A stretch of 42,519 nt of DNA. Source: Paludisphaera borealis (GTDB lineage Bacteria; Planctomycetota; Planctomycetia; Isosphaerales; Isosphaeraceae). The stretch lies in the NCBI RefSeq assembly GCF_001956985.1, contig NZ_CP019084.1, positions 1 through 42,519 of the forward strand, read 5' to 3'. A program made the position numbers and the translations under genes. The notes under the pieces are model-generated. The model saw only the letters and a list, made by a program, of their open reading frames with translations, did no database searches and was not told where the DNA came from. Position 1 is the first letter of the stretch. Every line of letters begins with the position of its first letter. Positions 10,406 through 38,743 of this stretch are shown in pieces.

Positions 10406-10463
10406 CCGCACGGGCGGTTGAAGAAGCTCTTTGACGATCCAGATTTTGGAAGAGGAGCATTTT

Positions 10464-12401
10464 ATGTTCATGCGTATCCGTTTAGCGACTGCGTCCACGG
10501 TCGCGTCTGCCTGCCGGGCGACGCTCATCCTGGCGTTGGTCGTGCTGGCCGCAGCCGCCACCGTGATCGCCATGCGGTTTCCAGTGCTGCTCATGGCCGC
10601 TGCGGGCTTCATCGCCTGGCGGCGGCTGATCTACCATCCGGCGTCGGATGCATACGGCTCGGCGTCGCTGCTTACGCCCCAGGCGATGGAAACGGCGGGC
10701 ATGCTGGGCGACAAGGGGCTGGTCGTCGGCCGCTTGCCGCCCGACCCGGTGCCGATACTGTCGGCCGCAACGTCGTTGTTTTCGCCGCAGGTGGAAGCGG
10801 CGGAAGCGGTCAATCGCTTCATGGCGGCGGCAGGCTTCGGCATCCACCGCGGCGGCAAGCTGATACGCATTCCCGATTATATACATTCTGCCGTGTTCTC
10901 ACCGGCTGGCGGCGGCAAGAATGTGGGGTTCGTCACCCCTACCCTGCTGTCGCACCCCGGCAATATCGCCATCATCGACCCGAAAGGAGAGAGCTTCAAG
11001 GCGGCGGCTGCATGGCGAAAGAAACGCTTCGGCAAAAAAGCCTATCGCCTCGATCCCTTCGAGATGTTCGGCACCAGCCACACATTGAATCCCTTTGATT
11101 TCATCGACCCGAAGAAGGAGGATTTCCTCGACCAGTGCCGGGATTTCGCCAACCCGCTGATCATCCGGCCGCCCAATGACCAGCACCCGCACTTCTCCGA
11201 TATGGCGGAGCTGAATCTGGTCGGGCTGACCGCATTCACCATCGCTTGCGAGACTGACAAAAAGCGGCGGCACTTGGGAACTGTCCGCGGCCTTTCCTCG
11301 TCGCGGGAACGCTACGACATGGCCTTGAAGGTGATGGGTGAAAGCGACGCTGCCAGCGGCGTCATCAGGCAGCTTAGCGGCGAGATGGGCTTTGCCGCAC
11401 CGGAGGAGCAAGGCTCGATCCTGACTACTTTCACGCGGAACCTGGCGTTCCTGGATTCGCCCGTCGTCACCCGCAACGTCAGCACTTCTAGCTTCGACCC
11501 GATGGAGCTGAAAACCGGCAACGCCGACCTGTATTTCATCCTGCCGCATCGCCGCCTGACCAGCCTGGCCAGGCTCCAGCGGCTGTGGATCACCTCGGTG
11601 ATGAATCGGGTCACCAGCGGCCTGCCCGACGAAAGCCAAACTCTTTTGTGGGTGCTTGATGAGATCGCCCACATCGGTTCCATCCCCGCGATCGAGGAGG
11701 CGACCACGCTCTATCGCGGCATGGGCATGAGGTTGATGTTCATATTTCAGTCTTACGCCCAAGTCAAAACCTGCTTCGGCGAAAAAGCTTCCACCATCCT
11801 CGACAATATTCACACGCAAGTTTATGTGAATCTTGCGTCGATGGAAACCGCCCAGGAGCTGAGCCGACGGATCGGCGAAACCACCCGTACCGTGTACAGC
11901 GAAAACGGCGGCGACGGCGATTCCTACCAGACGGGGGCTGCCAGCCAAGGGCAAGGCGGCAGCAAGTCGTCGAACCGGGGCTGGAGCCGCAGCGAAATCG
12001 CCCGCCAACTGCTGAAGCCGGAGGAAATCCTGACGCTGCCGCGTGACACCTGCATCATCCTGCACAAGAACCTGCCCGCCTGCCTTGGATGGATGGTGCG
12101 TTACTACCAAGACCCCGAATTCACCAGCGGCATTGGGCGGCATCGACGCGTCGGGCTGGCTGGCACCGTGTTTTGTTCGCTGCTGCTGGTGCTGAGCCTG
12201 CTCTTCGGAGCATTCGTCGCCAAGGGCGTGGCGCCGCCGACGCGATCGGCGGGCAACCGGTCTTCAACGCTGAGCAAGGCGGGCGTGCACAAACACCTGC
12301 CCTCCTCTCCCGGCGGCAGGATACCGGCCTATCCGACGAAACGGCGGCCCTCCAGCCGCAACCACCGCAGCAACGACAGCGGATTTCTCATCAAGATATG
12401 A
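10464..12401 (+). CDS. VirD4/TraG-type coupling protein (T4CP)
   Basis: This ATPase links the relaxase-DNA complex or protein substrates to a type IV secretion channel. Two N-terminal membrane helices are visible (ATLILALVVLAAAATVIA and VLLMAAAGFIAW). Walker A is at about residues 146-153 (SPAGGGKN), followed by IAIIDPKGESF, a typical VirD4 signature. Walker B (LLWVLDE) is at about 394-400. The C-terminal half has the usual IFQSYAQ segment. Unusually, an extra hydrophobic helix (VFCSLLLVLSLLFGAFVA, ~573-590) and a basic tail end the protein. At 645 aa it is in the family range. The start at 10464 is backed by AGAGGAG 6 nt upstream. No VirB4 or channel gene was found in the window. Confidence 0.92.
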   Translation: MFMRIRLATASTVASACRATLILALVVLAAAATVIAMRFPVLLMAAAGFIAWRRLIYHPASDAYGSASLLTPQAMETAGMLGDKGLVVGRLPPDPVPILSAATSLFSPQVEAAEAVNRFMAAAGFGIHRGGKLIRIPDYIHSAVFSPAGGGKNVGFVTPTLLSHPGNIAIIDPKGESFKAAAAWRKKRFGKKAYRLDPFEMFGTSHTLNPFDFIDPKKEDFLDQCRDFANPLIIRPPNDQHPHFSDMAELNLVGLTAFTIACETDKKRRHLGTVRGLSSSRERYDMALKVMGESDAASGVIRQLSGEMGFAAPEEQGSILTTFTRNLAFLDSPVVTRNVSTSSFDPMELKTGNADLYFILPHRRLTSLARLQRLWITSVMNRVTSGLPDESQTLLWVLDEIAHIGSIPAIEEATTLYRGMGMRLMFIFQSYAQVKTCFGEKASTILDNIHTQVYVNLASMETAQELSRRIGETTRTVYSENGGDGDSYQTGAASQGQGGSKSSNRGWSRSEIARQLLKPEEILTLPRDTCIILHKNLPACLGWMVRYYQDPEFTSGIGRHRRVGLAGTVFCSLLLVLSLLFGAFVAKGVAPPTRSAGNRSSTLSKAGVHKHLPSSPGGRIPAYPTKRRPSSRNHRSNDSGFLIKI

Positions 12402-12453: not shown

Positions 12454-12873
12454 ATGTCAGACGAAACGCAGGAGAAAAGCCTTCTCCAAAAGACCGGGGC
12501 TGGGATCGCGGCGGTTGGAGCCGGGATCGCGGCGGTATACCGGGCTGCGACCAGAGACGGCGTCATCGACGCGTTCCTGCGGCAAGGCGTCGATGAAATC
12601 GGCGTCGCCCTGAAGCCGTTCGGCGAATCGATCCAAACGGAGGAGCCGGGGCAGGCGTTCAGCCCCCTTTACAGCGATATCGCCGCCGACAAGCGGCAGC
12701 GGCAATCCCAGCCTTCGCCCGGCGACCTGGCCGACAGCGTCAGCCCGAAAATCACGCCGCAGGCGAGCACCAGCCAGCAGGTTTCGCCCGGCGACCTGGC
12801 GGAGGGAAAGGGCGTGGAACCGCAGGCGGCGGTGCAGGCCCAGCAGCGGCAAGCGATTCGGATGTCCGTTTAA
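12454..12873 (+). CDS. SPGDLAE-motif protein 1 (139 aa)
   Basis: Not recognised as a known family. A short Gly/Ala-rich segment (TGAGIAAVGAGIAAVY) could insert in or touch a membrane. The middle is ordinary, and the C-terminal third carries two copies of a peptide: SPGDLADSV near residue 89 and SPGDLAEGKGVE near 111. It ends in a Gln/Arg tail (QQRQAIRMSV). The same peptide recurs in the next two genes and in the gene after the relaxase. The gene has AAAGGAG before the ATG and lies 52 bp after the coupling-protein gene, so it may be a transfer substrate or accessory protein (inference). Confidence 0.75.
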   Translation: MSDETQEKSLLQKTGAGIAAVGAGIAAVYRAATRDGVIDAFLRQGVDEIGVALKPFGESIQTEEPGQAFSPLYSDIAADKRQRQSQPSPGDLADSVSPKITPQASTSQQVSPGDLAEGKGVEPQAAVQAQQRQAIRMSV

Positions 12874-12883
12874 CCGTCACGAT

Positions 12884-12910
12884 GCTAAGGCGGCATGTCG
12901 CCGCCTTAGC
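12884..12910. other. Intercistronic hairpin
   Basis: A perfect 11-bp stem, GCTAAGGCGGC with GCCGCCTTAGC, with loop ATGTC. It lies between SPGDLAE genes 1 and 2. It has no T-run, so it is probably a stability element. Confidence 0.65.
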
Positions 12911-12930
12911 TGATTTCCGGGGGTGAAACC

Positions 12931-13890
12931 ATGGCCGAGAAGCAGCCCGAGGCAAAGCAGGCGGGTGACGCCAGCCTGCCCGATCGCAGCGAATACGACC
13001 GGATTGCCGCCAGACCCATATTCGACAAGCTGACCAAGGAGGAAATGGAAATCCTCAGCGACGTGGACGAGTTCGGCCTCACGGCTGGGGAGCGGGATAC
13101 GTTTTACCTCTACACGGAAGGTAGCCGGGTAAGTACCTACCATGTCTGGGAACCGACGGAAACACCTGGCCTATTTCCAGAAGGATATAATTCCGTGTTT
13201 AGTTGCGATGCGGCAAGCATCGATAACGCCATCGCCGTCGCACGCGAGTCCATCCAGCTGAATCCCGATTTCGTAATCACCGATTCCGACGGCAACGGCT
13301 ATCGATTCATCAATCTCCAAGGGGACAGTGAGCATTTCTATCGGGTCAGGCCTGCCGACCTCGAACCGCATCCCATGCTCCCTGGGAAATCCCTCTTCGA
13401 CAAGCTGACCGCCGAGGAAATCGAAATCCTCCGCGACGTGGACGATAGCGGCTTCACGGATGCGGTTCGGAGTCGGCATATCCTCGGGGAATTCGGCATC
13501 ACGGTGGCAAAGTTTCATGTGTGGGAGCCGGGCGAATCGCCGGGCCAGTTTCCCGTCGGTTACAACCACCTGCTCGAATTCGAGGCGGGGGGCATTCTCA
13601 ACGCCGTCGATATCGCCCGCGAATCGCTGCACCTGGAGCAGTCATTCATCTTCACCGATGGGTACAGCACCGGGTATCGATTCATTAACTCTGTCGGCGA
13701 CGTGCAGCCCTTTTCGCTGGCGCCGGTAAGCTCGGCCGAGTTGACCGACGGCGGCATGCCATCGTGGCTGAAGCCGGTTCCTGCAAACCAGCCCCCTTCC
13801 CCCGGCGACCTGGCCGAGGGCAAAGGCGTGGAACAGCAAAAGGCTGGGCGACCCCGGCAGCCTCGCCTTTCCAACGGCATCAGGTTGTAG
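12931..13890 (+). CDS. SPGDLAE-motif protein 2 with an internal domain duplication (319 aa)
   Basis: Two copies of a ~110-residue domain stand in tandem, at about residues 28-137 and 154-263. Each copy has FDKLTxEExEIL, then SxVSTYHVWEP or ITVAKFHVWEP, then PVGYN or PEGYN, then GYRFIN. The domain is not one I know. The C-terminus carries SPGDLAEGKGVE (near residue 291) followed by a basic tail (RQPRLSNGIRL), as in protein 1. The start has GGGGGTG upstream. It is likely soluble, with no signal peptide. Position in the coupling-protein cluster and the shared tail suggest a common partner or common export route (inference). Confidence 0.75.
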   Translation: MAEKQPEAKQAGDASLPDRSEYDRIAARPIFDKLTKEEMEILSDVDEFGLTAGERDTFYLYTEGSRVSTYHVWEPTETPGLFPEGYNSVFSCDAASIDNAIAVARESIQLNPDFVITDSDGNGYRFINLQGDSEHFYRVRPADLEPHPMLPGKSLFDKLTAEEIEILRDVDDSGFTDAVRSRHILGEFGITVAKFHVWEPGESPGQFPVGYNHLLEFEAGGILNAVDIARESLHLEQSFIFTDGYSTGYRFINSVGDVQPFSLAPVSSAELTDGGMPSWLKPVPANQPPSPGDLAEGKGVEQQKAGRPRQPRLSNGIRL

Positions 13891-13933
13891 CCGAAACCGG
13901 CCATGGACGGCCTTCCCATTTGGAGGTGCATCC

Positions 13934-14461
13934 ATGACGCGATCGAATGACGGCAACGGTTCCCCCCCTGCCCCGCCCAAAGCGGACTGGCGGGGAGCGA
14001 ATCTGCAAAACGTCAACTTCGCAGGCGTGTCGCTGGAAGGGGCCGACATGCGGGCCAGCGACCTGTCGGGCGCCAATTTCACCAGTGCCAGCCTGCGGTA
14101 CGTCGATCTTCGCGGTGCGAAGCTGGTAGGCACGACGTTTCAAAACGCCAGCCTGTACGGTGCTAAGTTGCAGGGGGCCGAGGCATATCACGCCGATTTT
14201 CGGGGTTGCGACATGCGACATGCCAACCTCGGCGGTGCTTACCTCGAAGGAGCCATGCTGCCGCCTCCCACGGTTTCGCCGGGCGACCTTGCGGAATCGG
14301 CGGCGTTGAACCATGCCAGCGAACCCGGCCAAAAGCAGAAGCCGCAGGCGGAGCATTCGCCGGGCGACCTGGCTGAAGGCAAAGGCGTGGCTGCAAGGAA
14401 CGAGCAAGGACAGGGTCAGAAAACGCACCAGCGTAATGGGCATCGGCAGGGGATCAGCTAA
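13934..14461 (+). CDS. SPGDLAE-motif protein 3: pentapeptide-repeat protein (175 aa)
   Basis: Residues ~16-110 are pentapeptide repeats, with A(D/N)LxG-type units such as ANLQN, VNFAG, VSLEG, ADMRA, SDLSG, ANFTS, VDLRG, AKLVG, AYLEG. They fold as a right-handed beta-helix; family members include gyrase-protecting proteins and secreted effectors. Two SPGDLAE copies follow (near residues 115 and 141; the second reads SPGDLAEGKGVA), then a basic Gln/Arg tail ending QGIS. TTTGGAGG precedes the ATG. It is the last gene before a strong terminator. Its function is unknown; DNA mimicry or an effector role is possible. Confidence 0.8.
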   Translation: MTRSNDGNGSPPAPPKADWRGANLQNVNFAGVSLEGADMRASDLSGANFTSASLRYVDLRGAKLVGTTFQNASLYGAKLQGAEAYHADFRGCDMRHANLGGAYLEGAMLPPPTVSPGDLAESAALNHASEPGQKQKPQAEHSPGDLAEGKGVAARNEQGQGQKTHQRNGHRQGIS

Positions 14462-14543: not shown

Positions 14544-14575
14544 CTAGATATCTAGTCATTTAGAAATTCAGTCAG
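14544..14575. repeat. Octad array 1 (CTAG 8-bp repeats)
   Basis: Four units starting at 14544, 14552, 14560 and 14568, exactly 8 bp apart, reading CTAG, CTAG, TTAG, TCAG with 4-nt spacers. It lies between the terminator and parA. It is in the same 8-bp register as array 2, 112 bp away. It is probably part of the centromere for the plasmid's ribbon-helix-helix proteins. Confidence 0.7.
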
Positions 14576-14655
14576 CTGTTCGTAGTGGCCTGCTTTGGCC
14601 GCTGATTTTGGTTGCTTTTCAAGCAGTCCAGCGATACACTGCGACCATCAAACGA

Positions 14656-14703
14656 CTAGTTTACTAGATATCTACCAGCCTAGCCGACCAGTCATTTAGA
14701 AAT
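14656..14703. repeat. Octad array 2, parA operator/centromere candidate
   Basis: Six units at 14656, 14664, 14672, 14680, 14688 and 14696 (CTAG, CTAG, CTAC, CTAG, CCAG, TTAG), all 8 bp apart. It ends 43 bp before the parA start codon, so a ribbon-helix-helix protein bound here could repress parA as well as act in segregation. Confidence 0.75.
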
Positions 14704-14746
14704 TGGGCAACCGGATTTTGGGCGAGGCCACGAGAACAATGCAGCC

Positions 14747-15355
14747 ATGATTATCACCATCGTGTCATTCAAGGGTGGCGTCGGAAAAACGACCACCGCC
14801 ATCCACCTGGCTGCCTATCTCCAGAAATCCGGCAAGACGGTGCTGCTCGACGGTGACCTTAATCGAAGTGCCACGGCATGGGCTGCTAGGGGCAACGATT
14901 CCTTGCCATTCACCGTCGTCGATGAGCAGCTGGGTTTCACCGCCAACGATGCCCGGCATGCCGTCATCGATACGGCCGCCCGTCCGGCACCGGCAGTATT
15001 GAAGGCCCTGGCCACGAAAGTGGATTTGATCATCATCCCGACGACCACCGATGGCTTGTCGCTGGATGCCTTAGCCAAGACCGTCGAAGCCTTGCGGGAA
15101 GTCGATGCTGACAAATTTCGGGTGTTGCTGACGATGGTTCCCCCCCGCCCTGCTCGTGATGGGGACATCGCTAGAGCGGCATTCGAGGAAGCCGGGTTAC
15201 CGCTGTTCAAAGGCAGCATCCGGCTCCTGAAATCCTTTAAGACAGCGGGCACTCAAGGCGTGCTGGTATCCGACGTAAAAGACCCGCGTGCGTCTCTTGG
15301 TTGGGATGATTACGCCGAGGTCGGGGCCGAGCTGAAGAAGTTTGCCAAACGATGA
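14747..15355 (+). CDS. parA: ParA partition ATPase
   Basis: A short ParA/Soj/MinD-family ATPase (202 aa) with the deviant Walker A motif KGGVGKTT at residues 9-16, the VLLDGDLNRSATAW segment (Walker A', residues ~33-46), and VIDTAARP as Walker B. It lacks an N-terminal DNA-binding extension, like ParF-type (Ib) ParA proteins, whose partners are small ribbon-helix-helix proteins; two such genes follow. It forms the ATP-driven part of plasmid segregation. Octad arrays lie directly upstream. No strong ribosome site is visible before the ATG. Confidence 0.92.
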   Translation: MIITIVSFKGGVGKTTTAIHLAAYLQKSGKTVLLDGDLNRSATAWAARGNDSLPFTVVDEQLGFTANDARHAVIDTAARPAPAVLKALATKVDLIIIPTTTDGLSLDALAKTVEALREVDADKFRVLLTMVPPRPARDGDIARAAFEEAGLPLFKGSIRLLKSFKTAGTQGVLVSDVKDPRASLGWDDYAEVGAELKKFAKR

Positions 15356-15363
15356 GGGGAGCG

Positions 15364-15687
15364 ATGAGCAAGAAACCGGACGATGCTTCGCGGGTTGCTG
15401 GGTTGGCCAGCATCCTGAAAGCCACTAACGCCAAACCAGACTCCCCCCTCTCCCCTGCCCCGCTGCCTCCAGCGGCGGCACCAGAATCGAATGCCGTGGA
15501 GCTGACGCCGCGTAAGCGGAAAGAGAAAGTCGGAAAGTACCGTGATCCCGATTTCAAGATCACCAGTACGTATCTTAGAAAGACGACGATGAAGCGTGCT
15601 CGTCGCAAGTGGGAGGATTTGCAGCCCGAAAAGGACTTCAGCGACTTGCTGCAAATGCTTTTAGAGCAATGGCTTGAGGCCAATTGA
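15364..15687 (+). CDS. Probable ParA partner, ParG-like small DNA-binding protein (107 aa)
   Basis: Starts 8 bp after the parA stop, with an AGGGGAG-type ribosome site just before it; an ATG at 15352 overlapping the parA stop is the alternative. The N-terminal half is proline-rich and flexible. The C-terminal half (FKITSTYLRKTTMKRARRKW followed by LQPEKDFSDLLQMLLEQWLE) looks like a ribbon-helix-helix fold: a beta strand and two helices. This layout of flexible tail plus ribbon-helix-helix is typical of ParG-type centromere binders, which also stimulate ParA. The octad array that follows its stop codon is a likely binding target. Confidence 0.75.
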   Translation: MSKKPDDASRVAGLASILKATNAKPDSPLSPAPLPPAAAPESNAVELTPRKRKEKVGKYRDPDFKITSTYLRKTTMKRARRKWEDLQPEKDFSDLLQMLLEQWLEAN

Positions 15688-15698
15688 TATTTAATCAA

Positions 15699-15762
15699 CT
15701 AGTCTTCTGAATTTCCAGCATTCTAGATATCTAGTGATTCAATCACCTAGTCAGCTAGTCAT
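15699..15762. repeat. Octad array 3
   Basis: Eight units in strict 8-bp phase from 15699 to 15755. They read CTAG, CTGA, CCAG, CTAG, CTAG, TCAA, CTAG, CTAG. It fills the gap between the two ribbon-helix-helix genes and probably controls the second one or forms part of the centromere. Confidence 0.75.
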
Positions 15763-15885
15763 TTGCAGCTTGGCGTCCAGATCATTCAAGCGGAGAGCTT
15801 GTTTAGCCGATGTGTGGTTAGACGGACAGACGGAACCGCGTGTAGCCGCTTTGCCGTCCAAACGCTTGAACAGGATGGAGGCAAA

Positions 15886-16146
15886 ATGGCTGACAACCCG
15901 GAATCTGGAAACGTCAAAAGCAAAAAGCGGCAAAGTCTGAAAGCCGTAAACCGGCAAGCGGCTGCGAAGGTGAAGGCGACAATCCATCTTTCCGTTGATA
16001 GCTCCCAGCGATTGACGATCCACGCCGCTATGCTGGGGTTGGATCGCTCCGAGCTGGTCGAGCAGCTGATACAGACGCATCTCCGGCGGTTTGTCGTCAG
16101 TGATCGCGGCGGCCAGGAAGAACTGGCCGACGATGCAGCTGCGTAA
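15886..16146 (+). CDS. Ribbon-helix-helix protein (86 aa)
   Basis: The basic N-terminal tail (KSKKRQ and ARQAAAKVK-like residues) precedes a compact ribbon-helix-helix domain: strand ATIHLSVDSS, helix QRLTIHAAMLGL, turn DRS and helix ELVEQLIQTHLRRF. GGAGG lies 6 nt before the ATG at 15886. The gene is bracketed by octad arrays 3 and 4. It could be a second centromere-binding protein or an autorepressor. A longer reading from 15763 would start inside the repeat array and is less likely. Confidence 0.8.
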   Translation: MADNPESGNVKSKKRQSLKAVNRQAAAKVKATIHLSVDSSQRLTIHAAMLGLDRSELVEQLIQTHLRRFVVSDRGGQEELADDAAA

Positions 16147-16167
16147 GGGCAGGGGGGTTGTAGCCAA

Positions 16168-16207
16168 CTAGCTCACTAGACTGCTAGATTTCTAGAAATC
16201 TAGTCAT
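16168..16207. repeat. Octad array 4 (perfect CTAG units)
   Basis: Five units at 16168, 16176, 16184, 16192 and 16200, each with an exact CTAG and 4-nt spacers. This is the cleanest array. It lies 21 bp after the stop of the 86-aa ribbon-helix-helix gene, where no promoter is needed, which favours a centromere role. Confidence 0.8.
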
Positions 16208-16410
16208 CAACCCCTCAGCTGCTTTACCGCTCGATGCTCGACGGTGCTTAGCAGCCAAAGCGTTTTGGCGACCGTAGCCGATGGCCATGGATTCGCTTTG
16301 CGGGTAAACCTTTGAACCTCTGAGGGTGCCGAAGCCGCTACCTGTCCAGCCGCTGAAAGCTTCGAGCGTCTAAGCGGCAAGGACGCAGTGGACGGGCATC
16401 GGCCAATAAG

Positions 16411-16474
16411 CTAGTTGAGTAGATGGTTAGATATCTAGCTATTCAATAGCCTAGTCGTTTAGTCATCTAGGCTT
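16411..16474. repeat. Octad array 5
   Basis: Eight units in strict 8-bp phase from 16411 to 16467, reading CTAG, GTAG, TTAG, CTAG, TCAA, CTAG, TTAG, CTAG. Like array 3 it contains one TCAA unit inside the row. No gene start is nearby on the plus strand, again favouring a partition site. Confidence 0.75.
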
Positions 16475-23395: not shown

Positions 23396-25876
23396 TCAGA
23401 CCGTGACGACGATGTCAGTGCGGTTTGCAATCGCAGTTGTGATCAAATCGTATATCGTTATACTAGGATCATGAGCGTATAAGGTGACGATGAGCGAATA
23501 TCTTGCCAGCTTGTCGAAGCACCTATGACTGGGCCGCTCCCGCCACCATCCCGTAATCGGATGAACAGCTATGAATCCGCAAGCGGCCAACTCCGCAGCG
23601 GTGCCGTCCCAGTAATCGGAGTGGATGGAACCTTTCGTGCGGAGGTCCTCGCCGAGGTTCCAATTCCGCGTGTCGCTGACCAAATCGGAAGGACGATTCC
23701 CTTCGTCCCATGCATCGCGGGTAAGGCGTTTCATGAAACGCCCCATGTCCTCCTGCGGTCGTTTGACGGCGAATCGCAGGCCGTGAGATTGATAACGATG
23801 CTTGACGTTCCACCCTTTGCGGCCAGGGCTTGGCTCGATGAAATATGAGAGCGTGACCCGCATCCTTAGGGGCGTATCGCCCAGATCCTGCAAGGCTTCG
23901 ATTGGCCAAGGCAGATTATGCACATGCATTTGATTGGTTTTGGTCGCGTTCTTGCCCTCGTCCCAACAGAATGGTTGGAGCGAATCCTGGATGATCATCG
24001 TCGCCCTGCGTGATGCACACTGGCGGGCGATGCTTAGATTAGGCACGCCGTAGCCGTAACATCGAAGCCGGTCTTGGCGGCGAGGGTGGGGAAACTCCTC
24101 AAGCATACGCTCCGTCCAGCGAGCGGAATGGATGAGAAGGCCGCGTACGGATTCCGGCCATAAAGTTGGATATTCGGCCTGCAAAATGGCGGCGTATCGA
24201 GCCGCAAGAGCCGTGGCAGCACTGGTGTCGCGTGTCGTTGTGAGGAGGGCGCCATCGGGTGAAATGGTGGTTGTCAGCAGGGCTAAATCTTCGACATCCC
24301 AAACCTGGCCACTTGGATCGTGGGCGTAGTTGCCGCCTTCCATCACGATGTCGGGCTTCAGCGGCCATTCCCGCTTCGTCCAGCCGCAGGAAGTCGTACT
24401 GGAAGGGCACAGTGATCCGCGTTTGGCGATCGGATTGTAGCCGGCGAAATCATTGGAAGTGATCATAGCACGATCTGTATATGCACCGACCGTCACGACG
24501 TTCCACGCCTGCGACGGGTCCTGCACGCTGGCGGAATGATTGGCTTGGGGATATTCCGATAATATGATGTCGTGCTCATAATTGCCGGCGGATACCAACA
24601 TCAGACGGCGTACATCATCGGTGGCACCGGAACACATCTGATCCAGTGCGGCCGACCAAAGCGTCGGTGCCCACTGCTCCTTGTCACCAGCCGTGATGGC
24701 CATACAGATGACGCGTAGCCGGTCCGGTGCCTCGATCTCCATCTTTGCGATCGAACCGACCGTAATGGGGCCGTAATCGGGAGGATCGTTTGCCCCTGCG
24801 TCCGGGAGAATTTTCACCGCTTCCAAGCCGTGTTTAAGGTTGATCCTGTGGTCAGATACCAGCAGGCGGTTGAGAGCGGAACCATAGAGGATCAGGCCAG
24901 CCATCCCAGTGCCATGGCCATGCCGATCAGCTGCATCCCAATCATCATCCCACGCTAAGTTGTGTTCTTCGACCAGAGCGTGCTCCAGCAAAGGATGGCC
25001 CCGGTTTACTCCCCGGTCAAGAAGGCATACGGCCGGGGCTGAGCTGTCGGCGAACGTCGTCCGCTCCAGCATGGCCAGTATGAATTCTGTCTGCCCGGCG
25101 GGCGTGAGTTCCATGTATTCCGTCGGCACGATGCTCGCCCGGCGAAATTCGCCAAGGTAGCGGAGGAGTCCGGGGAAATCGCTGAATGTCGCTAGTGATG
25201 CGTAAGCGAGAACGACAACATAGTCAGGAAATCGAACCTGCTGATTGCTCACTCTGATGCCCAAAGATTCCGCTTCTTCGCGGAAATTCTCCTCGACAGC
25301 CAACTCGCGTCCATCCTGCGTGGTGACGGTGCCTTCATCCCGCAGCCAAACTTCCCACCAAAATTCCTCGTCAGGTGGCGGTGGAGGACCTGAATCGGTC
25401 CAGTAGTCGCCCAGGGAAAGCATCGCTAGCCGCAGCTCCCTGATGCTCTCTGCGAGCGAAGCGTTCGGCGGGTTGCCGTAATGATTGGTCTTATGTGCAT
25501 AATCCTCAAATTTCTTTGCGAACTTGGCGACGTTGTCTTTCGGGATATGCACGGTCGCCCGCTGTGACCCATCTGCTTCGTAGCGGAAGTTGATGATCTC
25601 CGATCCAATGACCTTGTTATCCAAGCTCTCCAGCCACAGTTTGAAGCCAGGATCGCTTGTGACGGCGATGGGAACGAAGGAAATGCCTTCGGCTGGCCTT
25701 TCGGGTGCAGCCTGCATGTCGGTCGCCGCTTGAAGGGCATTTGCGGCAAGATTGGGCCCGTGGACAGACCGTGCATCGCGTGGCGGCGTTTTGAACTCGC
25801 TTGAACCGCCGCCGGTGGAGACGTAGTTCTGAGCTTGGGCGGTGCCCTGAATAAGGAAGTGACGAAGCCGGGCCAT
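23396..25876 (-). CDS. ietS: Subtilisin-like serine protease of an IetAS system
   Basis: 826 aa. Catalytic triad of S8 peptidases: D287 (AVCLLDRGVNRGHP), H321 (DRHGHGTGMAG) and S552 (TRDTSAATALAARYA), with oxyanion N432 (VSAGNYEHD). There is no signal peptide, so it acts in the cytoplasm. The ~270 N-terminal and ~250 C-terminal residues flanking the protease are unassigned. It starts 2 bp after the AAA-ATPase stop. This pair is the IetA/IetS module, known from an Agrobacterium plasmid as a stability/incompatibility toxin-antitoxin locus and reported in defence surveys as an anti-phage system. Confidence 0.9.
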   Translation of the reverse strand: MARLRHFLIQGTAQAQNYVSTGGGSSEFKTPPRDARSVHGPNLAANALQAATDMQAAPERPAEGISFVPIAVTSDPGFKLWLESLDNKVIGSEIINFRYEADGSQRATVHIPKDNVAKFAKKFEDYAHKTNHYGNPPNASLAESIRELRLAMLSLGDYWTDSGPPPPPDEEFWWEVWLRDEGTVTTQDGRELAVEENFREEAESLGIRVSNQQVRFPDYVVVLAYASLATFSDFPGLLRYLGEFRRASIVPTEYMELTPAGQTEFILAMLERTTFADSSAPAVCLLDRGVNRGHPLLEHALVEEHNLAWDDDWDAADRHGHGTGMAGLILYGSALNRLLVSDHRINLKHGLEAVKILPDAGANDPPDYGPITVGSIAKMEIEAPDRLRVICMAITAGDKEQWAPTLWSAALDQMCSGATDDVRRLMLVSAGNYEHDIILSEYPQANHSASVQDPSQAWNVVTVGAYTDRAMITSNDFAGYNPIAKRGSLCPSSTTSCGWTKREWPLKPDIVMEGGNYAHDPSGQVWDVEDLALLTTTISPDGALLTTTRDTSAATALAARYAAILQAEYPTLWPESVRGLLIHSARWTERMLEEFPHPRRQDRLRCYGYGVPNLSIARQCASRRATMIIQDSLQPFCWDEGKNATKTNQMHVHNLPWPIEALQDLGDTPLRMRVTLSYFIEPSPGRKGWNVKHRYQSHGLRFAVKRPQEDMGRFMKRLTRDAWDEGNRPSDLVSDTRNWNLGEDLRTKGSIHSDYWDGTAAELAACGFIAVHPITGWWRERPSHRCFDKLARYSLIVTLYAHDPSITIYDLITTAIANRTDIVVTV

Positions 25877-25878
25877 GA

Positions 25879-26883
25879 TTACTCGCGTTCCTCGGCCTCG
25901 TTCTTGAAAGCACGCCGATTCTGCCGTTGGCTGATGGCTTCCTTCAAGGCGGCCAGTTCGACCAGGTTGCTGTCTTTAAGAACCGATTCCTTGGCGGCGG
26001 CGTCGCAAGCCTGACAGATATCGGCGTAGCTAAGCCCGAGGGCCCATTCAGACGCTTGCTGCACGCCCACCTCGTCGATGCCGAATCTCGCAAGCCGATT
26101 CAGGATCAATTCCCCGGCTTCGCTGGCGGTGGGCTTTTCGTAGTGAATCACCTCATCGAATCGGCGAAACAATGCCTCGTCCAGCATGGATGCGAGATTG
26201 GTCGCGGCTACGATGATACTATCTGAATCGTCTTGTTCCAAGAACTGAAGGAAGGAATTCAGCACCCGGCGGATTTCGCCAACGTCGTTGGCAGCCGCCC
26301 GCTCGCTGCCGATTGCGTCGAATTCGTCGAAGAGGTAGACGCCTCGCGTCTTAGGCATCAGCTCGAAGATCGAATGCAGCTTGGCAGCGGTTTCGCCCAT
26401 GAATTTCGTGATCAGGCTGTGAAGCTGGATAGACAAATGCGGAAGCTTCAGCTCGCCAGCCAAGGCACGTGATGTCATGGTTTTGCCGCATCCGGGCGGG
26501 CCGACCAGAAGGAGCTTTCTACGCGGCGACAGGCCATGTTCGCGTAGTTTCGACTTTTGCTTATATTCGCGTAAAACGAGATGAAGCTGTTTTTTGATCG
26601 GCTGGGACAGCACCATCTCGCTGAGACGGACGCTCGGATACGTTACCGCGAGCAGCTTGGCAAGTTCCCCGCTCGGCTGAACGATGGGTACGGCACCGCC
26701 AACCCTCTGGGTCCGCTGCTTCTGCCTTACGTCTTGGACCAAAATCTTAAGCTCTTCAGCGAGCTTGGATTTCCCGGTGCGGGCGGCGTGAGCGGCTATC
26801 TGCAATGCAACGGAGATGAATTGCTCGCCGTCCGCGTCACTGTAGCTCCGTAACAGGGCTTTTAGCTGCTCGGCGGTGGCCAT
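25879..26883 (-). CDS. ietA: AAA+ ATPase of an IetAS system
   Basis: 334 aa. Walker A GPPGCGKT (128-135), Walker B VYLFDEFD (182-189), sensor-1 N229 (AATNLASML) and arginines 240-241 (LFRRFDE) are all present, so it should hydrolyse ATP. The fold is of the classic AAA (FtsH/spastin-like) type. In IetAS the ATPase restrains or steers the subtilase. It is the first gene of the operon; the start at 26883 has GGAG 6 nt upstream. A possible operator (26929-26976) lies just before it. Confidence 0.9.
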   Translation of the reverse strand: MATAEQLKALLRSYSDADGEQFISVALQIAAHAARTGKSKLAEELKILVQDVRQKQRTQRVGGAVPIVQPSGELAKLLAVTYPSVRLSEMVLSQPIKKQLHLVLREYKQKSKLREHGLSPRRKLLLVGPPGCGKTMTSRALAGELKLPHLSIQLHSLITKFMGETAAKLHSIFELMPKTRGVYLFDEFDAIGSERAAANDVGEIRRVLNSFLQFLEQDDSDSIIVAATNLASMLDEALFRRFDEVIHYEKPTASEAGELILNRLARFGIDEVGVQQASEWALGLSYADICQACDAAAKESVLKDSNLVELAALKEAISQRQNRRAFKNEAEERE

Positions 26884-26928
26884 CAAAAACTCCGTGAAAA
26901 GATTCCTACTCTTACTATACCTCCTAAA

Positions 26929-26976
26929 CCCTGTAAATTACTTAACTTCAGGTCGTGTCGTCGAAGAATTACAGGG
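26929..26976. promoter_or_regulatory. Inverted repeat upstream of ietA
   Basis: CCCTGTAA (26929-26936) and TTACAGGG (26969-26976) form an 8-bp perfect inverted repeat 46 bp before the ietA start, with a 32-bp spacer. TATAGT lies close to it on the minus strand. It is a candidate operator for the defence operon; no regulator gene is obvious. Confidence 0.4.
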
Positions 26977-27122
26977 ATCATGCGTACAGTATATACGCCC
27001 AAGGCCTGGACGGCCATGCAGTTGCAATTGTCCTCGTCTCCGAGGTACGCCGCCAGCGGTGACCGCCCAGATAGTGCGGAAGGTAAACCAAGTAGCCGCT
27101 CGACGAAAGGCCGAGCTGAGGT

Positions 27123-28385
27123 TCACGCCCGCACCTTTAGCAGTTGCTCGATATCTGTCGTGTAGTGCCCGGTTTTCATCTTGGCGAAGGCCTTCCAGTC
27201 CCGGTGGGTGCCCGAACCGGCGTAGAAAACCGTATCCCGTCCCATGCGGCGATTCACCGCGTCCACTGCGGCCATCAGCTTGCCGCTCCTCACCTCGTCG
27301 CGGGCATCGAATAGTTCCCCCTGCCCTGTTCCGTCCGGGCAAAACTCATCTAGCATGACGCCGCATTTGGAGTAGTGCGGCCCTTGCCGGTAGATCCGCC
27401 GCAGCCCGCTGACGGCGTGGCGGATCAGTTCGGCGGTGTCGCTGGTGGGATGGGCCAGCTGGAAGCTGGCGGCATTGCTGAAATAGTTCTCCGTCGTCGA
27501 ATACGGGCTGTTGTGGAGGAAGACGGTCATGTGCCGGGCGGCAAGCCCGTCGCGGCGGAGCTTTTCGCCCGCACGCGTCACATAGGCGACCAACGCCTGC
27601 TTCACCGGCTCGAATTCGGTCAGCTTCTTGCCAAACATGCGGGAAACCACCAGCCCTTTCCGCGGTGCCGGTGCCAGTTCCAGCGGGATGCAGGGCGTGC
27701 CGCGTAGCTCGGCGGCGGTTCTCAAGCCGACGACGTGCATGTGCTGGCGAATCCAGCCGTCGGGCTGCTGGCTGAACGCCAGTGCATCGCCGATGCCGTG
27801 CCCGGCCAGAAAACGTGCCCACTGCCTGCCGATGCCCCAGACATCGCCCACAGGAAGCCGCTGAAGGCTCTCTGTGCGTTCCTGCTCCGTGGCGATGCTC
27901 CAGACGCCATTTGCCTCCGGCAGCTTCTTGGCGAGCTGATTGGCGGCCTTGGCGAGCGTTTTGGTCGGGCCGATGCCGACGCTGACCGGGATGCCTGTCC
28001 ATCGCTTGACGGTGCGGCGGATATCCGCCGCCATGGCGGCCAGCTGATCGGCCGGAAAACCGGCCAGATTCAGGAAGGCTTCATCGATGGAATAGACCTC
28101 CAGCTCGGGCGAAAACCGCTCCAGCGTCTGCATCACGCGGCTGCTCATGTCGCCGTAGAGCGTGTAATTCGAGGAAAACACCGCGACCTGGTGCTGATCG
28201 ACCAGCTGCCGCACCTTGAAAAACGCATCGCCCATCTTGAAGCCGAGGGCTTTCGCCTCGTTGCTGCGGGCGATGACGCAGCCGTCGTTGTTGGAAAGCA
28301 CGATCACCGGGCGGTTGCGGAGCTTCGGGTTGAACACCCGCTCGCACGACGCATAAAAATTATTACAATCGACCAGTGCGAACAT
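27123..28385 (-). CDS. umuC: UmuC-type Y-family DNA polymerase subunit
   Basis: 420 aa, full length for UmuC. The start MFALVDCNNFYASCERVF, then NDGCVIARSNEAKALG and YSIDEAFLNLAGF are the catalytic palm motifs of the family. It copies past DNA lesions (translesion synthesis, polymerase V) together with the processed partner encoded 6 bp upstream. Plasmid-borne umuDC (mucAB, impAB, rumAB) is common and raises survival and mutation after DNA damage. Translation is probably coupled to umuD. Confidence 0.95.
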   Translation of the reverse strand: MFALVDCNNFYASCERVFNPKLRNRPVIVLSNNDGCVIARSNEAKALGFKMGDAFFKVRQLVDQHQVAVFSSNYTLYGDMSSRVMQTLERFSPELEVYSIDEAFLNLAGFPADQLAAMAADIRRTVKRWTGIPVSVGIGPTKTLAKAANQLAKKLPEANGVWSIATEQERTESLQRLPVGDVWGIGRQWARFLAGHGIGDALAFSQQPDGWIRQHMHVVGLRTAAELRGTPCIPLELAPAPRKGLVVSRMFGKKLTEFEPVKQALVAYVTRAGEKLRRDGLAARHMTVFLHNSPYSTTENYFSNAASFQLAHPTSDTAELIRHAVSGLRRIYRQGPHYSKCGVMLDEFCPDGTGQGELFDARDEVRSGKLMAAVDAVNRRMGRDTVFYAGSGTHRDWKAFAKMKTGHYTTDIEQLLKVRA

Positions 28386-28391
28386 GGCAGG

Positions 28392-28826: not shown

Positions 28827-28996
28827 TCGGGTGCTGGTTTTCTGGGTGAGGCTAAAGCTTGCACCTCCTGGGGGCCGGTGGCAACCATTTTTTCATCTGG
28901 CAAAATGCGGGCTTGGCAGAAGGCTGCATGCATGTGGTAAAATAGGGGACAAATGGATAGGATAGCTGACGCTTCCTCAAGATAAGGAATGGCCTG

Positions 28997-30220: not shown

Positions 30221-30238
30221 AAGCAGCCTCAGCCGTTT

Positions 30239-30514: not shown

Positions 30515-30614
30515 GGCAAGCCTCGGCTATGGCCGGTAAATCTGGGTGAACCGGCGAACAGTATACGTTTGGCCATGCAGCAGGTAAAGTGGATGCCGAA
30601 AGGAGCCAAGCGGC

Positions 30615-31396: not shown

Positions 31397-31486
31397 ATCG
31401 GTCGGGTTGACAGGAAGAGCTTGATGTGGGAGCAAGATTAACCGAATCTAAACCCTTTCATCCGCAAAGCCTTTGGGTAACCGTCA

Positions 31487-35445: not shown

Positions 35446-35466
35446 GTGCCTTCTGGGGGCTATCGC

Positions 35467-38211
35467 ATGCTGACGATCTACGCCGCCACCTCCTCCGCAC
35501 AAGTGAAAAAATATTTCGACGTTGCGGATTACTACACCGAGGGACAAGAGACGATTGGCCTCTGGGGTGGTGATCTGGCCAAGCGGTTGGGGCTGTCGGG
35601 CGTCGTCGATAAGGCCAGCTTCGAGCGATTGTGCGACAACCTGCACCCGTTCACCGGGGAATCCTTCACGCCGCGAACCAACGTCTTCCGCCGGGTGGGC
35701 TACGACATGGTGTTTTCCGGGCCGAAGAGCTTCAGCATCGTGCAGGCACTGGCCGACCCGGAAGAGCAGCGGAACCTTCGGCTGATGTTCAGCGATTCCG
35801 TCGATGAAACCATGCTCGAGGTCGAAAGCGACATGCAGACGCGGGTGCGGCAGGATGGAGCCGTCCACGACCGGCAGACGGGAAACATGCTCTGGGCGTA
35901 TTTCGACCATTCGACTTCCCGCCCGGTGGGCAGGAGCGGGGCGGCCAACGACAATTCGCCATTCGGTGCCGCCAACGACAACGTGCCGCCCGACATGCAA
36001 TGGCATAGACACGTCTTCTGCTTCAACGCAACGGAAGATTTGGAGGAAGGCCGGGTCAAGGCCGGGCAATTCGCCTACATCAAACGCGACGGCGAATATT
36101 ACGCCGCCGCCTTCTACGCCCGGCTTGCCCACAAGCTGGAGTCAGCGGGATACGCGATAGATCGCAAGGGCGGGAAGGAATGGGAAATCGTCGGCGTGCC
36201 TCAGGCGACGATTTCCACCTTCAGCAAACGCACAGGGCAAGTGGAGCAGCTGGCCGAGGAGCTGGGCATCACCGACGATGCCCGCAAATCCCAGCTGGGG
36301 GCGACGACGCGGGCGGGCAAGCAGAAGGAGCTGACGCAAGACCAGCTGCGGAAAGCGTGGGATGACCAGCTGAGCGACGGTGAACGCAATGCTCTGGCAC
36401 GCGTGCACGGGAAAGAGATGCCGGGCAGCCGCGTGGTCACCGCCGCCGAGGCGGTGGAATTCGCCATTGCCCACCTCAGCGAGCAGCTTTCGGCCTTCCC
36501 TGAGCGTGAGCTGAAGCGGGTTGCCCTGCTGCACGGGCTGGGGCATGTGCTGCCCGAGCAGATCGCCGCCGAGCTGCCCCGGCACGGCGTCATCACCCAG
36601 AACATCGACGGGCGGCTGATGGCCACCACCGAAGCCTTGCAGGCTGAGGAGCGGTATATCGTGCGGCAGGCGGCACGCGGACGCGGCAACGCCTGCCCTG
36701 TCGGCGTCGATGCCGGGCTTGCCCGCACGCTGGAAGGTGGCACCACGCTGACCGATGAGCAGTGGCAGGTGACGCGTGGGTTGCTGGAATCGGCCAACCG
36801 CGTCGAGGAGCTGGTGGGGCCAGCCGGTGCGGGCAAATCCTATTCGCTCGCTAAATTCGAGGAAGGGCTGAGCCGTGCCGGGCAGCACGGCACGTATCTC
36901 GCCACCACCGCCAAAGCGGCCAAGGTGCTGATTGACGATGGCTTCGAGGCGAAGACGGTTGCCCATTTCCTGCTTGACGCAAGGATGCAGGAAGCCGCCC
37001 GTGGCGGCCGCGTCGTCATCGATGAATCGTCGATGCTCGGGCATAAAGACGCGGTCAAGCTCTTCCAGATCGCCGAAAAATTCGACCTCAAGCTCATTTT
37101 TGTCGGGGACGGTTTGCAACACGGTGCTGTTCCAAGAGGGGCGTTCATGCGGCTGCTGGAGCAGCATGCCGGAATCACGCCGCATCGCCTCACCGGCATC
37201 ATGCGGCAGCAGGATACGGGCTACCTGCAGGCGGTGCAGTCGCTGAGCGAAGGCAGGACGGTCGATGGCTTCGACGCGTTGGACAAAAAGCAGTGGGTGC
37301 AGGAAATCGGCGACGCAGCGGAACGCTGCGACGCCATCGCCGCCGAATATGTGCAGGCGGCCAAAGACCACGCCTCGGTGCTGGTGGTAAGCCCGACCCA
37401 CGCCGAGGCGTTGGCGGTGACGCAGGCCATCCGCTCCCAGCTGAAAGATGCCGGGCTGCTGAGCAGCGAGGAGAAGGAATTTAGGCGGTTGGTGCAGGTC
37501 AACGCCAGCGAAGCGGAGCGTGGCCAAGCCAGCACGTACCGGGCGGGCGATGTCCTCCTGTTCCACCAAAACGCCAAGGGCGGTTATGTCAAAGGCCAGC
37601 GTCTGGCGGTCACCGACCCCAACGCCGTGCCGCTTGGCCAAGCGGGGCGGTTTTCACTCTACCGGCCGCAAAGCGTGATGCTCGCCGAAGGCGACCGCAT
37701 CCGCTTCACCGGCACGGTGGCACCCCTGAAAAAGGGTGCGAAGGCGTTCAAAAACGGCGACGCCGCCAGCATCGCCGGATTTACGCCCAAAGGCGATATC
37801 CGCCTCGATGACGGGCAAGTAATCGCCGCCGATGCCGGGTTATTCCGAAGCGGTTTCGTCGAAACCAGCTTCGGTTCACAGGGGCAGACCGTGCAGCGGG
37901 TGATTCTGGCCATGGCGGCGGAATCGCTGCCCGCGGTCAACCAAGAGCAGATGTACGTCTCGGCCAGCCGGGGTAAGGAGAAATTATCCTTATATACCGA
38001 TTCCAAAGAAGCGGTGCGGCAGGCCATCCAGAAATCGAGCCAGAAGCTGGCGGCACTGGATATCGAGCGGCAGGCGCCGCCGGACGCCCGGCCGCGTGAC
38101 TGGCGGCAGGATGACGACGAACGCAGGCGGCTGGCATTCCGCACGCAGCGGCAACCGGTGATTGAGCCGCCGCGTGAGCGGGAAGAAAGGCGGGTGGCGT
38201 ATGGACGGTGA
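35467..38211 (+). CDS. TrwC/TraI-type conjugative relaxase-helicase (MobF)
   Basis: 914 aa. Relaxase domain at residues ~1-300: tyrosines Y16, Y22 and Y23 near the N-terminus (VKKYFDVADYY) and a histidine triad H148, H180, H182 (QWHRHVFCF). Helicase domain after ~430: Walker A GPAGAGKS (451-458), Walker B VVIDESSML, and late motif SFGSQGQTVQ, as in the RecD-like TraI helicases. It nicks oriT, stays covalently bound, and unwinds the strand for transfer. A basic Arg-rich C-terminus (REREERRVAYGR) may aid export. The start at 35467 (MLTIYAATS) is chosen over the GTG at 35446. Next gene overlaps by 11 bp. Confidence 0.95.
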   Translation: MLTIYAATSSAQVKKYFDVADYYTEGQETIGLWGGDLAKRLGLSGVVDKASFERLCDNLHPFTGESFTPRTNVFRRVGYDMVFSGPKSFSIVQALADPEEQRNLRLMFSDSVDETMLEVESDMQTRVRQDGAVHDRQTGNMLWAYFDHSTSRPVGRSGAANDNSPFGAANDNVPPDMQWHRHVFCFNATEDLEEGRVKAGQFAYIKRDGEYYAAAFYARLAHKLESAGYAIDRKGGKEWEIVGVPQATISTFSKRTGQVEQLAEELGITDDARKSQLGATTRAGKQKELTQDQLRKAWDDQLSDGERNALARVHGKEMPGSRVVTAAEAVEFAIAHLSEQLSAFPERELKRVALLHGLGHVLPEQIAAELPRHGVITQNIDGRLMATTEALQAEERYIVRQAARGRGNACPVGVDAGLARTLEGGTTLTDEQWQVTRGLLESANRVEELVGPAGAGKSYSLAKFEEGLSRAGQHGTYLATTAKAAKVLIDDGFEAKTVAHFLLDARMQEAARGGRVVIDESSMLGHKDAVKLFQIAEKFDLKLIFVGDGLQHGAVPRGAFMRLLEQHAGITPHRLTGIMRQQDTGYLQAVQSLSEGRTVDGFDALDKKQWVQEIGDAAERCDAIAAEYVQAAKDHASVLVVSPTHAEALAVTQAIRSQLKDAGLLSSEEKEFRRLVQVNASEAERGQASTYRAGDVLLFHQNAKGGYVKGQRLAVTDPNAVPLGQAGRFSLYRPQSVMLAEGDRIRFTGTVAPLKKGAKAFKNGDAASIAGFTPKGDIRLDDGQVIAADAGLFRSGFVETSFGSQGQTVQRVILAMAAESLPAVNQEQMYVSASRGKEKLSLYTDSKEAVRQAIQKSSQKLAALDIERQAPPDARPRDWRQDDDERRRLAFRTQRQPVIEPPREREERRVAYGR

Positions 38212-38743
38212 CGTGCTCTCGAAATTCAAAGTTGCCCAGATCCGCCCGCGTACCTCGCCCGGCGATCTGGCGGAATCCTACACGCCATCCGCCTCGCCTG
38301 CGGCATCGGCGTTGGGCATCGACCAGATGGAGCAGTCGATTTACGCCGAGCCGCTGCCCCGGCTGGGCGAGGATTACCGGGCACATGCCAAGCCGCTGTC
38401 GCGGCACCGGCTGGGCGTCGATCCGAAGATGCTGCATTTCGTGGATAGGCTGGGCTGGAGCGAAGGCTACGCCTTCAGCGATTTGCGGCGTGTGAGCTGG
38501 AAGCCGGGCGGCAAGCCCGGCGACGGCCCGGTGCTGGTGCTGCGTTTCGTCGAAGCGGTGGTGACCGATATCGTGGTCGAGGGACGTAATTTAGAGGCGG
38601 TGCACACGCTGGTCAGCGAAGCGTCGATCCCGTGGCTGTGGGAGCAGCCGGAAGGCATTTTCATGACCAAGGATTCCGACGTGGTCATCACCCGCATTTC
38701 CTCGTTCCTGATCGACCGCGACAGCGGGAAGCGGAAAACCTGA
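38201..38743 (+). CDS. SPGDLAE-motif protein 4, encoded after the relaxase (180 aa)
   Basis: Overlaps the relaxase gene end by 11 bp, so translation is coupled. SPGDLAES lies near the N-terminus (residues ~19-26) in a flexible proline/serine-rich region, and a compact domain follows (LGVDPKMLHFVDRLGW, then GPVLVLRFVEAVVTDIVVEG and AVHTLVSEASIPWLWEQ). No family is recognised. The shared peptide links it to the three proteins behind the coupling protein 25 kb away. A role in the relaxosome or in recruiting the coupling protein is a reasonable inference. Confidence 0.75.
   Translation: MDGDVLSKFKVAQIRPRTSPGDLAESYTPSASPAASALGIDQMEQSIYAEPLPRLGEDYRAHAKPLSRHRLGVDPKMLHFVDRLGWSEGYAFSDLRRVSWKPGGKPGDGPVLVLRFVEAVVTDIVVEGRNLEAVHTLVSEASIPWLWEQPEGIFMTKDSDVVITRISSFLIDRDSGKRKT

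What the first reader, a model, noticed from the sequence alone, without database searches (positions are those of the whole stretch)
12454..14461. A new peptide signature, SPGDLAE, shared by proteins encoded behind the coupling protein and behind the relaxase
Six copies of SPGDLAE/SPGDLAD occur in four otherwise unrelated proteins: genes 12454 (two), 12931 (one), 13934 (two) and 38201 (one). Three genes follow the VirD4-type gene directly; the fourth follows the relaxase. In the first three the longest copy is SPGDLAEGKGVE or close to it, and is followed by a Gln/Arg-rich C-terminal tail. The DNA uses different synonymous codons in the copies, so the peptide has probably been kept by selection. 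Basic C-terminal tails are a known feature of type IV secretion substrates. I infer a short recognition motif for the coupling protein, or for export to the recipient, on cargo that includes a pentapeptide-repeat protein and a duplicated unknown domain.
Basis: partly seen in the sequence, partly recalled or inferred. Interest (0 to 1): 0.87.

Follow-up and report, generated by a model that had tools for sequence, protein, structure and literature searches.

The report
Shared peptide tag behind conjugation motor
On a planctomycete plasmid, several unrelated proteins encoded near the DNA-transfer genes carry the same short peptide tag, which appears to copy a conserved peptide of a small protein found beside such transfer motors in many planctomycetes, and related elements use different versions of it; a docking or export label is the most likely reading but is untested.

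Summary
Confirmed: six SPGDLA[E/D] copies in four proteins, and nowhere else in the 7.65 Mb genome. The first tagged protein (12454) belongs to a small-protein family whose tested members match no Pfam, NCBIfam or PHROGs family. In 66 of 71 loci examined (55 of the 60 found without using the coupling protein) it lies on the same strand behind a coupling-type ATPase. Its signature EPGTxxNPTPQEV[AT] looks like the source of the tag. Related elements carry other dialects at the same places: LPSPSEIA on pSINAC03, SLSDIAD in a second element of this same genome. The orthologous pentapeptide protein carries its locus's dialect. Synonymous codons have diverged while the peptide is kept. Best explanation: a short docking motif for the coupling-protein complex, borrowed by neighbouring proteins; export is possible but untested. 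No VirB4 passed cut-off in 45 genomes of the family, so an export channel is unknown.

The parts
10431..12401 (+). VirD4/TraG-type coupling protein (T4CP); ATG start at 10464
   Evidence: PF02534 E 5.4e-70, PF12696 2.2e-29
12454..12873 (+). small T4CP-linked protein with two SPGDLA tags (12715, 12784) and a divergent related site SPLYSDIAAD
   Evidence: family alignment and neighbourhood
12715..12735 (+). tag copy 1, SPGDLAD
12784..12819 (+). tag copy 2, SPGDLAEGKGVE
12931..13890 (+). 319-aa protein with an internal duplication (seen by eye); besides itself one weak partial match in 297 genomes of the class; one C-terminal tag
13798..13833 (+). tag copy 3, SPGDLAEGKGVE
13934..14461 (+). pentapeptide-repeat protein with two C-terminal tags; orthologues in pSINAC03 and in the chromosomal element carry other dialects
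   Evidence: PF00805 E 7.4e-35
14276..14296 (+). tag copy 4, SPGDLAE
14357..14392 (+). tag copy 5, SPGDLAEGKGVA
35446..38211 (+). MobF relaxase/helicase, no tag
   Evidence: PF08751 E 3e-63, NF041492 over its cut-off
38201..38743 (+). protein encoded after the relaxase, one N-terminal tag (38255); orthologues exist in both related elements
38255..38275 (+). tag copy 6, SPGDLAE

Best explanation
SPGDLAE is the local dialect of a short linear docking motif, roughly [ST][PL][GS][DE][ILV]A (some relatives have A, Q or H at the fourth place), probably a short N-capped helix in a disordered stretch. It is an extra copy of the conserved peptide (TPQEVT, TPGEVA or TQGEIA) of a small protein that accompanies coupling ATPases in many planctomycetes. 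I infer that this peptide binds the T4CP complex of its own element, and that other proteins of the element (pentapeptide-repeat protein, 12931, the protein behind the relaxase) carry copies so as to be recruited to the same site, most likely to travel with or prepare the transferred DNA. Shown: the shared peptide, the T4CP linkage of the small-protein family, the dialects and the codon divergence. Inferred: the descent from the family signature, the binding partner, recruitment, and any passage into the recipient.
For: All six copies of the plasmid dialect lie on this T4CP/MobF plasmid, and both SLSDIAD copies of this genome lie behind the chromosomal VirD4 gene; neither pattern hits elsewhere. 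The 12454 family has a T4CP-type ATPase upstream on the same strand in 66 of 71 loci (18 VirD4-type, 48 split-type); 11 of the 71 had been found through VirD4, and among the other 60 the figure is 55. Four of the 5 misses have 1,381 bases or fewer of upstream sequence. Three split ATPases were tested in Pfam: all hit PF12696 over cut-off, one also PF02534. The motif regex, written after seeing the tags, scores 29 per 10,000 aa in the small proteins against 0 to 1.15 in four other gene classes. Orthologous pentapeptide proteins (50 to 56% identical) carry the dialect of their own locus; pairing of small-protein and neighbour tags by locus ranks 1 of 24 permutations over 4 loci. pSINAC03 copies share 1 to 3 of 8 codons while the peptide is identical. 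Two dialects in one cell fit element-encoded partners better than a host protease or chaperone.
Against: No binding or transfer data. The relaxase, the main substrate, lacks the motif. The 38201 orthologue on pSINAC03 has no clear tag; the chromosomal one has only SPEELA, a common kind of helix start. Tags on other proteins were found in only 4 loci, all Isosphaeraceae, two of them in this genome. A blind search for tail sharing beat its control maximum only in the window and pSINAC03. In one search the own-locus match is not the best for every locus: L067 matches pSINAC03 as well or better, and L057 ties by identity. Many small proteins behind VirD4 in other lineages lack the peptide, as do some members of the family itself. 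ParB-like genes are also frequent neighbours (45 of 72 loci), so another hub is possible. No VirB4 passed cut-off. Structure models were of low confidence (mean pLDDT 44 and 52).
Confidence: 0.5

Rival explanations
1. The tag is a true translocation signal: tagged proteins are cargo passed into the recipient.
For: T4CP linkage. Another conjugation system exports plasmid-encoded helper proteins (PMC8406263, passages), and Xanthomonadaceae effectors share a VirD4-binding C-terminal domain (PMC6759196, passages). Five of six copies lie in C-terminal tails.
Against: No export data; one tag is N-terminal; the relaxase lacks it; basic tails are not conserved; no VirB4 match over cut-off in 45 family genomes.
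Confidence: 0.25
2. The tag binds a different element-encoded hub, such as the helical part of the small protein itself, the ParB-like protein (6713) or the ParA/VirC1-like protein (14747), and organises a donor-side complex or plasmid segregation.
For: ParB-like genes lie upstream in 45 of 72 loci. The gene after the tagged cluster hits CbiA (ParA/MinD type) and PF07015 VirC1.
Against: T4CP-type ATPases are found more often (66 of 71); among the clusters shared by 4 or more loci that one search printed, I saw no ParA-like representative (by eye).
Confidence: 0.2
3. The tags are spacer repeats in disordered tails, spread by recombination, without a specific partner.
For: The copies share more codons than independent draws (4.00 against 2.44 per pair); Pro/Gln-rich flanks; SPxEL-type sequences are common helix starts (recalled).
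Against: Most flanks are unrelated (17 to 43% identity over 30 bases) while the peptide is kept; pSINAC03 copies share only 1 to 3 of 8 codons; the tag follows the locus, not the protein lineage.
Confidence: 0.1

Closest known systems
XVIPCD, the C-terminal VirD4-recognition domain of Xanthomonadaceae T4SS effectors
   Same: one recognition element shared by otherwise unrelated proteins and linked to a VirD4-type protein (PMC6759196, passages)
   Different: XVIPCD is a C-terminal domain of effectors of a VirB1-11/VirD4 system; here the shared element is 6 to 12 residues, once N-terminal, with element-specific dialects and no VirB4 match over cut-off
T4CP accessory proteins (TraM-TraD of F; TrwA-TrwB of R388; IcmSW-DotL)
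   Same: small protein partnered with a coupling protein and, by inference here, recruiting substrates (PMC8406263 and PMC12857230, passages)
   Different: no sequence relation seen (small-protein members tested gave no significant Pfam or NCBIfam hit); here the peptide is also copied onto other proteins
Conjugally co-transferred helper proteins (PsiB, SSB, Par proteins of pED208)
   Same: plasmid proteins that may accompany DNA by way of the coupling protein (PMC8406263, passages)
   Different: the passages read name no short shared tag for them; the proteins here are a pentapeptide-repeat protein and proteins of unknown function

Membership tests
T4CP-linked small protein family of planctomycetes (defined here) | signature RQG.KEL....FP.S...EPG..NPT..E[VI][AT] in a protein of about 60-230 aa | tested here: met
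   window 12454 matches the family profile, E 1.5e-50, but it is one of the eight seed sequences; its signature peptide is divergent (SPLYSDIA)
T4CP-linked small protein family of planctomycetes (defined here) | close behind a coupling-type ATPase on the same strand | tested here: met
   53 bases behind VirD4 in the window; 66 of 71 loci overall, 55 of 60 outside those found through VirD4
XVIPCD-type T4SS effector signal | C-terminal XVIPCD domain | tested here: inconclusive
   Pfam gave only pentapeptide families, or nothing, for the four tagged proteins; whether Pfam has an XVIPCD model was not checked
XVIPCD-type T4SS effector signal | binds VirD4 | not testable with these tools
   needs a binding assay
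VirB/D4 type IV secretion system | VirB4 ATPase encoded in the genome | tested here: not met
   PF03135 0 of 45; TIGR00929 none over cut-off in 45 (weak local hits in 27, own genome included); PF19044 none over cut-off in 45 (weak local hits in 4). In the class, PF03135 in 2 of 297. Control genomes rang in 1, 8 and 7 of 14
Basic C-terminal T4SS secretion signal | positively charged C-terminal tail | tested here: not met
   as a shared feature: net +2, +5, +4 in three window proteins, but -3, +3, -1, 0, -1 in five tagged proteins of two related elements

The most novel reading that the evidence does not exclude
Planctomycete conjugative elements without a recognisable VirB4 use short, element-specific address tags, copied from the peptide of a T4CP partner protein, to label their own accessory proteins for the coupling protein. 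Two elements living in one cell use two dialects (SPGDLAE and SLS[DE]IA) and so keep their cargo apart.
Probability: 0.3. Interest if true: 0.87.

Novelty: new variant of a known kind. Interest (0 to 1): 0.74.

Why it matters
If the tag is a docking motif, it gives a compact and directly testable model of how a coupling protein recognises proteins other than the relaxase, with natural sequence dialects to probe specificity. It also points to a T4CP-linked protein family, widespread in planctomycetes, that the libraries searched do not name, and to elements that combine MobF relaxase and T4CP without a recognisable VirB4.

Tried and rejected
A recent gene-duplication artefact was rejected: most flanks are unrelated and synonymous codons have diverged. 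A host protease or degron tag is thought unlikely because two dialects coexist in one genome. A general search for C-terminal tail sharing gave scores inside the range of 284 control comparisons except in the window and pSINAC03, so the wider claim that T4CP neighbours in general copy the small protein's tail is not made. Homology between the NPTPQ-type and the YGPGQYTP-type small proteins is only weakly indicated (hhalign probability 26.7%, E 6.9e-4). The 12931 model could not be used (mean pLDDT 44) and the 12454 model was little better (52), so no fold search was run. Viral contigs gave one related T4CP locus and no SPGDLAEGKG. A plasmid search with a doubled tag peptide found nothing, though so short a query may miss. 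No paper in the held library contains the string SPGDLAE; six further literature searches listed no paper that I recognised as describing this family or tag, judged by listings only.

Full report
Six copies of SPGDLA[E/D] lie in four genes, 12454, 12931, 13934 and 38162/38201, all on the + strand. A degenerate DNA pattern covering [S/T/C/R/W]PGD[L/F]A[D/E] finds exactly these six places in the whole 7.65 Mb genome, and one hit for the pattern read backwards. Across 45 genomes of the same family (own included) no other genome has more than 4 hits over both strands, so six on one 42.5 kb contig is far above background. With the tags masked, the four proteins show no mutual similarity except a weak 12931/38201 match at E 0.006 to 0.05.

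What the window is. The contig (42,519 bases, the whole of C3) carries a VirD4-type coupling protein at 10431 and a MobF relaxase at 35446. The nearest named relative found is plasmid pSINAC03 of Singulisphaera acidiphila DSM 18658, coupling proteins 39% identical. It has a similar gene order: ParB-like, VirD4, small protein, pentapeptide protein, ParA (there on the other strand), and MobF followed by a hypothetical protein; 12931 has no counterpart there. Genome G037 holds a contig of the same length with the same tagged genes, so I take the family to be Isosphaeraceae; the genomes themselves are unnamed.

The tag is not confined to this plasmid. On pSINAC03 the orthologues at the same two places carry LPSPSEIA[Q/N], twice in the small protein and once in the pentapeptide protein. 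A second VirD4 gene on this organism's own chromosome (C1:37805, with a MobF gene about 16 kb away at C1:20908) is followed by a small protein with PTLSEIAAS, a pentapeptide protein with PSLSDIADA and a 396-aa protein with PSLSDIADS. The SLSDIAD pattern occurs exactly twice in the genome, in those last two genes, with no control hits. G039 carries PSPSQIAAS and PSPSHIAGN in the small protein and PSPSAIANG in a second protein; in G032, G015 and G008 I saw SPSAIA, SPSEIA, SPGDIA, TPGEVA or SPSDIA in the small protein only.

Where the tag comes from. Members of the small-protein (12454) family that I tested have no significant match in Pfam, NCBIfam or PHROGs. A profile of eight seeds, all taken from behind VirD4 genes, found 75 places in 51 of 397 genomes of the class (only ten candidates per genome were scored, so this is a lower bound). 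I examined 71 loci: 70 of those 75 places plus one found separately (L061); five listed places were not fetched, and pSINAC03 was counted once although held twice. The alignment shows a helix-like part, RQG.KEL..aL.AFP.S, then EPGt.gNPTPqEV[AT], and a tail that often ends in MER or a similar form. SPGDLA aligns residue by residue with TPGEVA or TPQEVT of this signature. The window protein keeps a divergent copy at that place, SPLYSDIAAD, besides its two SPGDLA copies. That the tag derives from this signature is an inference from the alignment; not all members keep the EV[AT] part.

Linkage to coupling proteins. In 66 of 71 loci a coupling-type ATPase lies upstream on the same strand: 18 of VirD4 type and 48 of a split type. 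Eleven loci had been found through VirD4 in the first place; among the other 60 the figure is 55. Four of the five misses have 1,381 bases or fewer of upstream sequence. The split type was recognised by a profile built from the neighbour cluster itself; of three members tested, all hit PF12696 over its cut-off and one also PF02534. In 29 loci a gene for a hydrophobic protein of about 190 aa stands directly before the small protein (no membrane prediction was run). ParB-like genes were upstream in 45 and tyrosine-recombinase-like genes nearby in 32 of 72 loci (named by eye). In other planctomycetes the gene behind VirD4 is often a small protein of another type (YGPGQYTP, ending GREM or ER): by eye a small protein of either type follows VirD4 in 18 of 24 loci (one more runs off its contig) and in 6 of 6 further planctomycete loci (L166 to L171). 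Its relation to the 12454 family is weak, and many of these lack the peptide.

Selection. Among the six window copies, mean codon identity is 4.00 per pair against 2.44 for independent draws (fraction of simulations reaching it 0.0022). Thirty-base flanks are mostly 17 to 43% identical; the exceptions (50 to 73%) are downstream of 12454b, 12931 and 13934b, where GKGV continues the match, and upstream of 12454a and 13934b. On pSINAC03 the three LPSPSEIA copies share 1, 2 and 3 of 8 codons; the two SLSDIAD copies share 3 of 7. Common descent followed by long retention of the peptide is the simplest reading.

Locus dialects. The pentapeptide proteins of window, pSINAC03 and chromosome are orthologous (50 to 56% identity), but each carries the dialect of its own locus. 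Pairing small-protein tags with neighbour tags by locus gives the best of 24 permutations over four loci, the strongest result that four loci can give; but L067 taken alone matches pSINAC03 as well or better, and L057 ties by identity. The motif regex, written after the tags had been seen, hits the small protein 29 times per 10,000 aa and other gene classes 0 to 1.15 times (some of its 26 hits come from the duplicate of pSINAC03, and the greedy gene calls missed the pentapeptide gene of the window). A blind comparison of tails exceeded the control maximum only in the window and pSINAC03. Spread to other proteins is thus confined to four Isosphaeraceae loci in this sample.

Mechanism. I take the peptide to be a docking motif for the coupling-protein complex. 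[ST]-P-x-[DE] is a typical helix start (recalled), and the low-confidence models place a short helix over one of the two tags of 12454 and over the 12931 tag (local pLDDT about 50, weak evidence at best). The partner is inferred from gene order: T4CP-type ATPases are the most constant neighbour seen. Two dialects in one cell could keep two elements' accessory proteins apart. Whether docking leads to transfer into the recipient is open. For comparison, pED208 exports Par, SSB and Psi proteins, which needs engagement of the relaxosome with TraD (PMC8406263, passages), and Xanthomonadaceae effectors share a VirD4-binding C-terminal domain (PMC6759196, passages).

The fourth tag lies at residue 19 of 180. 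Tails after the last tag have net charge +2, +5 and +4 in the window but -3, +3, -1, 0 and -1 in five tagged proteins of the two related elements. The relaxase has no tag. The orthologue of 38201 on pSINAC03 has no clear tag, and the chromosomal one only SPEELA.

A wider oddity. No VirB4 match passed cut-off in 45 genomes of the family: PF03135 0 at any level reported; TIGR00929 weak local matches in 27, the own genome included; PF19044 weak local matches in 4. The same profiles rang in 1, 8 and 7 of 14 control genomes, over cut-off in 1, 1 and 4. PF03135 rang in 2 of 297 genomes of the class. MobF was found in 20 of 45, and the VirD4 profile at E 1e-60 or better in 62 of 397, some of these partial. 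A cluster with a relaxase but no VirB4 is classed as mobilizable in the ICE survey PMC3158045 (passages). A VirB4 too divergent for these profiles is not excluded.

Noticed in passing
whole genome and family: MobF relaxases (20 of 45 genomes) and T4CPs are common in this family while three VirB4 profiles give no match over cut-off in 45 genomes; in the class PF03135 rings in 2 of 297. The transfer channel is unknown.
   Followed up: partly
G000:C1 about 20908-42000 (L240, L057): The host chromosome holds a second MobF gene and a second VirD4 cluster with a gene order like the plasmid's and the SLSDIAD dialect; whether both lie on one element was not tested.
   Followed up: partly
L110, L112, L113, L121, L146 and others: Many planctomycete loci seem to have a split coupling protein: a roughly 500-aa ATPase followed by a roughly 190-aa gene for a hydrophobic protein and the small protein.
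   Followed up: partly
L245:7951-8406 (-), L183: A pentapeptide-repeat protein behind another VirD4 ends in QERERNGREY, much like the ERGGREM ends of small proteins in related loci (its own neighbour ends EMGGMEM).
   Followed up: partly
L111:9425-9901; L268:11090-11863: Neighbour proteins hold peptides like those of their small protein (GYQEMLEE against SYDQMLES; RLQDILDG against SLQDILDA), perhaps a second shared motif; chance was not tested.
   Followed up: no
window 14544-16438: Six CTAGATATCTAG-like sites (0 to 1 mismatch, two of them overlapping) and two AGTCATTTAGAAATT repeats around the ParA-like gene, perhaps a partition site or operator; 8 matches at up to 2 mismatches in the window against 0.3 expected.
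   Followed up: partly
window 23396-34366: Defence-like cluster: IetS/IetA pair, PDC-S54, Cas4-like nuclease and a MmeI-type IIG restriction-methylation enzyme.
   Followed up: partly
L036:6721-8855; L062:10560-11486; L068:6587-7522 (-); L171:6999-8818: Two protein families of about 300 and 400 aa, apparently exported (by eye), recur next to planctomycete coupling-protein genes, 12 loci each; no significant Pfam match for the four proteins tested. Possible parts of an unknown transfer apparatus.
   Followed up: no
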